Part shown: one piece after another, positions 34,885 to 43,533 of the stretch
Layout: every line of letters begins with the position of its first letter
Position numbering within the stretch: the stretch's first letter is position 1
NCBI GenBank assembly: GCA_038893495.1
Contig: JAWARJ010000001.1
Location: 1,849,824-1,913,823 of the forward strand
Length of the DNA stretch: 64,000 nucleotides
Reading direction: 5' to 3'
From: Thermoproteus sp.
GTDB lineage: Archaea > Thermoproteota > Thermoprotei > Thermoproteales > Thermoproteaceae
Notes under the pieces: model-generated
Database searches by the model: none
Told to the model about the DNA's origin: nothing
Seen by the model: the letters and a program-made list of their open reading frames with translations, nothing else
Translations under genes and position numbers: made by a program

Positions 34885-37378
<2,494 letters not shown>

Positions 37379-37400: not shown

Positions 37401-37457
37401 GTCTTCAGTTCTTAAAGGAATCTTCACCTGTCTAGGGGGTGAAGCCTCATCACAAAC
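37401..37457 (-). ncRNA. Box C/D guide sRNA with two 16S rRNA guides
   Basis: Read on the minus strand: GUUU stem, box C GUGAUGA (37447-37453), 12-nt guide GGCUUCACCCCC, D' UAGA, 4-nt spacer, C' UGAAGA, 12-nt guide UUCCUUUAAGAA, box D CUGA (37405-37408), AGAC stem; GUUU pairs with AGAC. Total 57 nt with ideal spacing. The D guide complements CUUAAAGGAA of the conserved 16S segment near E. coli position 915, and the D' guide complements GGGGUGAAGUC (one G-U) near 1490. The fifth-nucleotide rule predicts 2'-O-methylation at positions equivalent to U912 and G1489 (E. coli numbers). A/T-rich CAAATTTTTAAG (37473-37484) upstream could be its promoter. rRNA sequences are from memory, so a check against the host 16S is needed. 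Confidence 0.85.
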
Positions 37458-37622
37458 GCTAGGGGGCCTTCACTTAAAAATTTGTTTATGGGATCAAGTC
37501 GCCTATCCGCGGAGGCTACACGCACGTCTAGGCCTCGTCGATCTCGACGAGGCAGCCGTACGTCAAACCATAGGTCTTGCGTTCCTCCGAAAACTTTAAA
37601 AGTAGGCCGGTCGTTGACGGCG

Positions 37623-37787
37623 ATGGGCAAAGTCAGACCGCCTAAAGAGAGGAAATTCGGGAGGGGGGCTCTTAGATGTCAGAGGTGCGGCACGAGAGAG
37701 GCGATAATTCGTAAATATGGCTTGATGCTTTGTAGGAGGTGTTTCCGCGAGGTCGCCGAGGAGTTGGGGTTTAGGCGGTACTACTAA
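37623..37787 (+). CDS. rps14: Ribosomal protein S14 (zinc type)
   Basis: 54 residues with zinc pairs CQRC and CRRC. ATG 37623 is 26 nt after ACTTTAAAAGT; the longer frame from 37482 is upstream DNA. Followed by S8. In many archaea L5 precedes S14; here the upstream neighbour is an sRNA and pyrG. Confidence 0.96.
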
Positions 37788-43484: not shown

Positions 43485-43533
43485 ATGAAGATGCTGGACG
43501 CGGCCGAACGGTGAAGAGGCGTGAAAGGGCTGA
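43485..43533 (+). ncRNA. Candidate box C/D guide sRNA
   Basis: Reads AUGAAGA (C, one mismatch from RUGAUGA), 12-nt guide UGCUGGACGCGG, CCGA (D' variant), ACGG spacer, UGAAGA (C'), 12-nt guide GGCGUGAAAGGG, CUGA (D), then a T-run at 43534-43539. The spacing is identical to the stronger sRNA at 37401. Against: the terminal stem is poor, D' is imperfect, I know no rRNA target, and the T-run doubles as the TATA box of the next gene. Confidence 0.4.

What the first reader, a model, noticed from the sequence alone, without database searches (positions are those of the whole stretch)
37401..37457. Textbook 57-nt box C/D sRNA guiding two methylations of 16S rRNA
On the minus strand between pyrG and rps14: box C, 12-nt guide, D', 4-nt spacer, C', 12-nt guide, box D, flanked by a 4-bp stem, with every spacing ideal. 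Both guides match universally conserved 16S segments (around E. coli 912 and 1489). Two independent matches make chance very unlikely. It is too short for ORF-based annotation and would be missed by many pipelines.
Basis: partly seen in the sequence, partly recalled or inferred. Interest (0 to 1): 0.85.

Follow-up and report, generated by a model that had tools for sequence, protein, structure and literature searches.

The report
Conserved C/D-box guide RNA for 16S

Summary
On the minus strand, 37457..37401, lies a complete archaeal box C/D sRNA: C GUGAUGA, 12-nt guide, D' UAGA, 3-nt spacer, C' GUGAAGA, 12-nt guide, D CUGA. It is the only strict-pattern hit in the window, against 0 expected. 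The host is a Thermoproteus-type archaeon. A sequence model finds the same sRNA in 33 genomes of two families, with guides, boxes and a TATA-like element about 25 nt upstream conserved. The host has fibrillarin, Nop5 and L7Ae genes.

The D guide pairs with CUUAAAGGAA of the host 16S, targeting U912 (E. coli numbering). The host 16S has a second match, AGGGGUGAAGCU, targeting G942, 31 nt from U912. All 30 parsed homologs keep the base that pairs properly only at 942, and in the sister family the 1489 site carries a mismatch while the guide is unchanged. Dennis et al. 2015 list Pca sR56 (U894; G925 and G1358) and Tte sR46 (G924), which match this family in spacing and D'-box shift. It is a new ortholog of an apparently published sRNA.

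The parts
37401..37457 (-). box C/D sRNA (57 nt including 4-nt flanks)
37447..37453 (-). box C GUGAUGA
   Evidence: conserved
37435..37446 (-). D' guide GGCUUCACCCCC; best-supported target 16S G942 (E. coli numbering), possible second target G1489
37431..37434 (-). box D' UAGA (homologs NNGA)
37421..37427 (-). box C' GUGAAGA
37409..37420 (-). D guide UUCCUUUAAGAA; target 16S CUUAAAGGAA, 2'-O-methylation predicted at U912
37405..37408 (-). box D CUGA
   Evidence: conserved
37473..37483 (-). TATA-like element AAATTTTTAAG, probably the sRNA's own promoter
   Evidence: TATA-like start 21-30 nt upstream of box C in 22 of 30 homologs, 11 in the next bin upstream, 1-5 in the others
37313..37373 (-). 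second conserved C/D-like sRNA in tandem, between this sRNA and pyrG; D' guide antisense to a tRNA T-arm (neighbour, not part of the first sRNA)
35658..37277 (-). pyrG (CTP synthase), downstream neighbour on the same strand
37623..37787 (+). rps14 (ribosomal protein S14), divergent neighbour

Best explanation
It is a dual-guide archaeal box C/D sRNA gene, probably with its own promoter. Its transcript assembles with L7Ae, Nop5 and fibrillarin; the D guide directs 2'-O-methylation of 16S U912 (helix 27 region) and the D' guide of 16S G942 (helix 29 region), 31 nt away. It is the ortholog of Pyrobaculum calidifontis sR56 and Thermoproteus tenax sR46. Shown: anatomy, conservation, complementarity in the host 16S, presence of the machinery genes. 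Inferred: transcription in this host, methylation at these two nucleotides, any effect on rRNA folding.
For: Strict C/D pattern unique in the window with 0 expected by chance. Sequence-model hits at E of 1e-9 or better in 33 genomes of two families. All 30 parsed homologs keep CUUUAA in the D guide and GCUUCACC in the D' guide. Nine-position core at 942: 248 of 270 cells Watson-Crick, 15 mismatched; at 1489: 202 and 38 (for f2 genomes whose 16S was not recovered, the 1489 sequence was taken from the ten f2 genomes where it was read). Guide position 11 is G in 30 of 30: a Watson-Crick pair at 942 but always a wobble at 1489. In the f2 family 16S has C at 1490, yet the guide keeps A. TATA-like box 21-30 nt upstream in 22 of 30. 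Fibrillarin, Nop and L7Ae genes present. Dennis 2015 Table 3: Pca sR56 D target U894, D' target G925 (31 apart, as here) and Tte sR46 D' target G924; the homolog in the genome of T. tenax size has its D' box one nt later, which predicts exactly one nt less.
Against: No expression or methylation data for this host. In the host itself the D' guide pairs better with 1489 (12 of 12, -24.5 kcal/mol) than with 942 (11 of 12, -21.6). The D guide pairs at only 10 positions. Box D' is non-canonical. The link to sR56/sR46 rests on target positions and genome sizes, since the supplementary sequences could not be read; Tte sR46 is printed with D targets U547 and 984, and I take 984 to be a slip for 894.
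Confidence: 0.85

Rival explanations
1. One reading: the same sRNA, but the D' guide targets 16S G1489 (helix 44, decoding region) rather than G942, linking helix 27 and helix 44.
For: In the host the D' guide pairs 12 of 12 with GGGGGUGAAGUC including one G-U, better by about 3 kcal/mol than at 942. Dual guides with one linked and one distant target are reported in PMC4644070.
Against: Guide position 11 is G in 30 of 30 homologs although A would pair properly with U1495. f2 genomes have C1490 and keep the mismatching A. Pca sR56 is published with G925 and G1358, not with the 1489 equivalent. Most Pyrobaculum rRNA dual guides hit sites within 100 nt of each other (PMC7994747).
Confidence: 0.12
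2. The D' guide serves both G942 and G1489 in Thermoproteus species.
For: Both sites pair at 11 or more positions in the three congeners that carry GGCUUCACCCCC. Two-target guides are described in PMC4644070.
Against: Only the 942 pairing is kept across the family; the 1489 match could be a by-product of two similar 16S segments sharing GGGGUGAAG.
Confidence: 0.25
3. The sequence is a hairpin (terminator or pyrG leader element) rather than a C/D sRNA: CUUCACC and GGUGAAG form a 7-bp stem.
For: The single-strand fold shows that stem (z -1.83).
Against: Only 10 of 30 homologs keep even the 6-bp core, because box C' varies while the guide stays fixed. In f2 genomes the neighbouring genes tested were not found nearby but the sRNA is kept.
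Confidence: 0.02
4. Chance resemblance or a decayed pseudogene.
For: One D' box variant and two mismatches next to box D.
Against: Conservation from box C to box D in 33 genomes with variable flanks, and the same variation (NNGA, positions 1-2) in homologs.
Confidence: 0.01

Closest known systems
Pyrobaculum calidifontis sR56 (Dennis et al. 2015, PMC4644070 Table 3)
   Same: D target U894 and D' target G925 in their alignment numbering, 31 nt apart like the U912 and G942 equivalents in the host; the genome of matching size (G009) holds a clear homolog
   Different: Pca sR56 is also assigned a distant D' target G1358, which the host guide fits poorly; sequence not compared letter by letter because the supplement was not available
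Thermoproteus tenax sR46 (same table)
   Same: D' target G924, as predicted from the G002 homolog whose D' box lies one nt later; same genus and same pyrG-rps14 neighbourhood
   Different: Printed D targets U547 and 984; U547 corresponds to the other CUUAAAG in 16S, 984 is probably a slip for 894
Rfam snoPyro_CD (RF00095) and sR5 (RF01304)
   Same: General C/D box layout over the whole length, 53-58 positions
   Different: 16.0 and 13.8 bits against gathering scores of 45 and 40; not members
Thermofilaceae-type sRNAs in G071, G078, G079
   Same: D guide with CCUUUAAG, target U912
   Different: A different D' guide (GGCCGUACUC in G071 and G079), complementary to 16S near position 890, the other strand of helix 27

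Membership tests
archaeal box C/D sRNA | Box C RUGAUGA and box D CUGA near the ends | tested here: met
archaeal box C/D sRNA | Internal C' and D' boxes with short, fixed spacing | tested here: met
   C' GUGAAGA; D' UAGA (keeps GA); D'-C' spacer 3 nt, 3-4 nt in homologs
archaeal box C/D sRNA | Guides of about 12 nt complementary to rRNA in N+5 register | tested here: met
   U912 by the D guide (10 pairs), G942 by the D' guide (11 pairs)
archaeal box C/D sRNA | Host encodes L7Ae, Nop5 and fibrillarin | tested here: met
archaeal box C/D sRNA | Stable RNA bound by the sRNP proteins | not testable with these tools
   needs RNA-seq or co-precipitation
Pca sR56 / Tte sR46 family | Homologous to the window sRNA in both guides, end to end, in those two species | tested here: met
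   Homologs in genomes whose sizes fit P. calidifontis and T. tenax; those names are inferred from remembered sizes, only the P. oguniense size was confirmed from a paper
Pca sR56 / Tte sR46 family | Same published target positions | tested here: met
   31-nt spacing equals 925-894; G924 for T. tenax follows from its shifted D' box; the D target 984 printed for Tte sR46 does not fit unless it is a slip for 894
Pca sR56 / Tte sR46 family | Identity of the homologs with the published sRNA sequences | not testable with these tools
   supplementary files of PMC4644070 not available
   mismatch at 1490 in the f2 family and wobble at 1495 in 30 of 30

The most novel reading that the evidence does not exclude
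In Thermoproteus the D' guide has gained a second, distant target at G1489 in helix 44 while keeping G942, so that one sRNA bridges helix 27, helix 29 and the decoding-site strand of helix 44 during 16S folding. Across the class the U912 guide is kept while its partner guide is exchanged (942 in two families, near 890 in Thermofilaceae-type genomes).
Probability: 0.2. Interest if true: 0.4.

Novelty: new member of a known kind. Interest (0 to 1): 0.22.

Why it matters
It adds one well-supported RNA gene, easily missed by protein-based annotation, to a hyperthermophile genome, and shows that naming a guide's target from the best single-genome match can mislead: comparing homologs moves the D' target from the decoding helix to a site next to U912. 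The U912 guide appears old in this class, with the partner guide replaceable. None of this changes the understanding of C/D sRNAs.

Tried and rejected
Rfam at gathering score finds nothing here; sub-threshold hits are to other C/D families. Plasmid records gave no match. The pyrG scan of named genomes returned no close relatives, probably because near genomes are left out, so host naming rests on genome sizes and kinship. The hairpin reading was rejected on homologs. A bacterial-type promoter and terminator scan is not suited to archaea and found nothing. The 2018 Pyrobaculum catalogue (PMC6009581) is not held. A partly similar group of f2 sRNAs (L019, L023, L028) shares box C and the start of the D' guide but has another D guide; not pursued.

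Full report
What is there. On the minus strand, 37457..37401, the window reads GTTT GTGATGA GGCTTCACCCCC TAGA CAG GTGAAGA TTCCTTTAAGAA CTGA AGAC. This is box C, D' guide, D', spacer, C', D guide, D. A strict C/D pattern finds this site alone in the window on both strands, and none in 40 Markov-shuffled windows. With shuffled guides, 4 of 300 (D') and 0 of 300 (D) reach the observed pairing with host 16S.

Host and surroundings. The window lies in a single contig of 1,995,394 bases. The sRNA ends 123 bases upstream of pyrG on the same strand and lies opposite rps14. pyrG, the sRNA, rps14 and rps8 are together in the congeners G002, G003 and G004; in G005 the rps14-rps8 side is found and pyrG is not within the stretch read. 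In Pyrobaculum-type genomes the sRNA lies next to a resolvase and/or phosphoribosyltransferase gene, often with pyrG nearby, and in G011 directly upstream of pyrG.

Conservation. BLAST matches in relatives mostly run from box C to box D and stop there. A sequence-only model built from 13 homologs hits 33 genomes at E of 1e-9 or better, all in families f1 and f2, out of 81 genomes of the class. Thirty were parsed in full. Box D' always ends in GA; C' fits RUGRNGA in all but one (AUGAUGU in G010). The end stem is not conserved. A TATA-like element starts 21-30 nt upstream of box C in 22 of 30 genomes, with 11 in the next bin upstream and 1-5 in the others, so the gene probably has its own promoter. 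That is a minority arrangement for archaeal C/D sRNAs according to PMC7994747.

Targets. Numbering was checked on E. coli rrsB. The D guide pairs with CUUAAAGGAA and places the methyl group at U912 by the N+5 rule. For the D' guide the host 16S offers two places: AGGGGUGAAGCU (G942; 10 Watson-Crick pairs and one G-U, position 1 mismatched) and GGGGGUGAAGUC (G1489; 11 Watson-Crick pairs and one G-U). On the host alone 1489 looks better by about 3 kcal/mol. Across homologs it does not: guide position 11 is G in 30 of 30, which pairs properly with C948 but only wobbles with U1495, and A never occurs. In the f2 family 16S reads GGCGAAGUC, with C1490, in all ten genomes where it was read, but the guide keeps A at that position, a mismatch at 1489 and a pair at 942. 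Guide position 12 is A in 8 genomes, fitting the 942 site.

Published relatives. Table 3 of Dennis et al. 2015 (PMC4644070) lists Pca sR56 with D target U894 and D' targets G925 and G1358, and Tte sR46 with D' target G924. In Thermoproteales 16S the U912 and G942 equivalents are 31 nt apart, as are 894 and 925. The homolog in the genome of T. tenax size has its D' box one position later, which moves the target one nt upstream, to 924. The printed D targets of Tte sR46, U547 and 984, fit if 984 is a slip for 894: the D guide core CUUUAAG also matches a second CUUAAAG 345 nt upstream of U912. I therefore regard the family as already published from RNA-seq, with the caveat that the sequences themselves were not compared.

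Partner exchange. Three genomes of family f5 carry a C/D sRNA with the U912 guide but another D' guide, in two of them complementary to 16S near position 890 (complement read by eye from the host 16S).

Machinery. Fibrillarin and Nop5 genes lie side by side in the host, and two L7Ae-family genes are present.

What is not shown. Neither transcription nor methylation in this host was tested. Whether G1489 is an additional target in Thermoproteus remains open.

Noticed in passing
window 37373..37313, minus strand: A second conserved C/D-like sRNA in tandem, between the first sRNA and pyrG. Its D' guide UUGAACCCACGC is antisense to GCGUGGGUUCAA, which falls in three tRNA-Leu genes of the host. Its C'-D interval is long and GC-rich (ends UGGCGGGCG-CUGA) in Thermoproteus and Pyrobaculum alike, while the f2 homolog L183 has an ordinary short one; the interval folds no better than shuffles.
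   Followed up: partly
G071, G078, G079 (L168-L170): Thermofilaceae-type sRNAs keep the U912 guide with a different D' guide, in two of them aimed at the other strand of 16S helix 27.
   Followed up: partly
L019, L023, L028: f2 genomes carry a partly similar sRNA with the same box C and D'-guide start but another D guide (GACUCCAAU).
   Followed up: no
G000:C1 ends (L003, L004): About 117 bases of 16S are repeated at both ends of the host contig, probably an untrimmed circular overlap that splits the 16S gene.
   Followed up: partly
window 43485..43533, plus strand: Second hit of a loose C/D pattern (0 expected): ATGAAGATGCTGGACGCGGCCGAACGGTGAAGAGGCGTGAAAGGGCTGA; conservation and targets not tested.
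   Followed up: no
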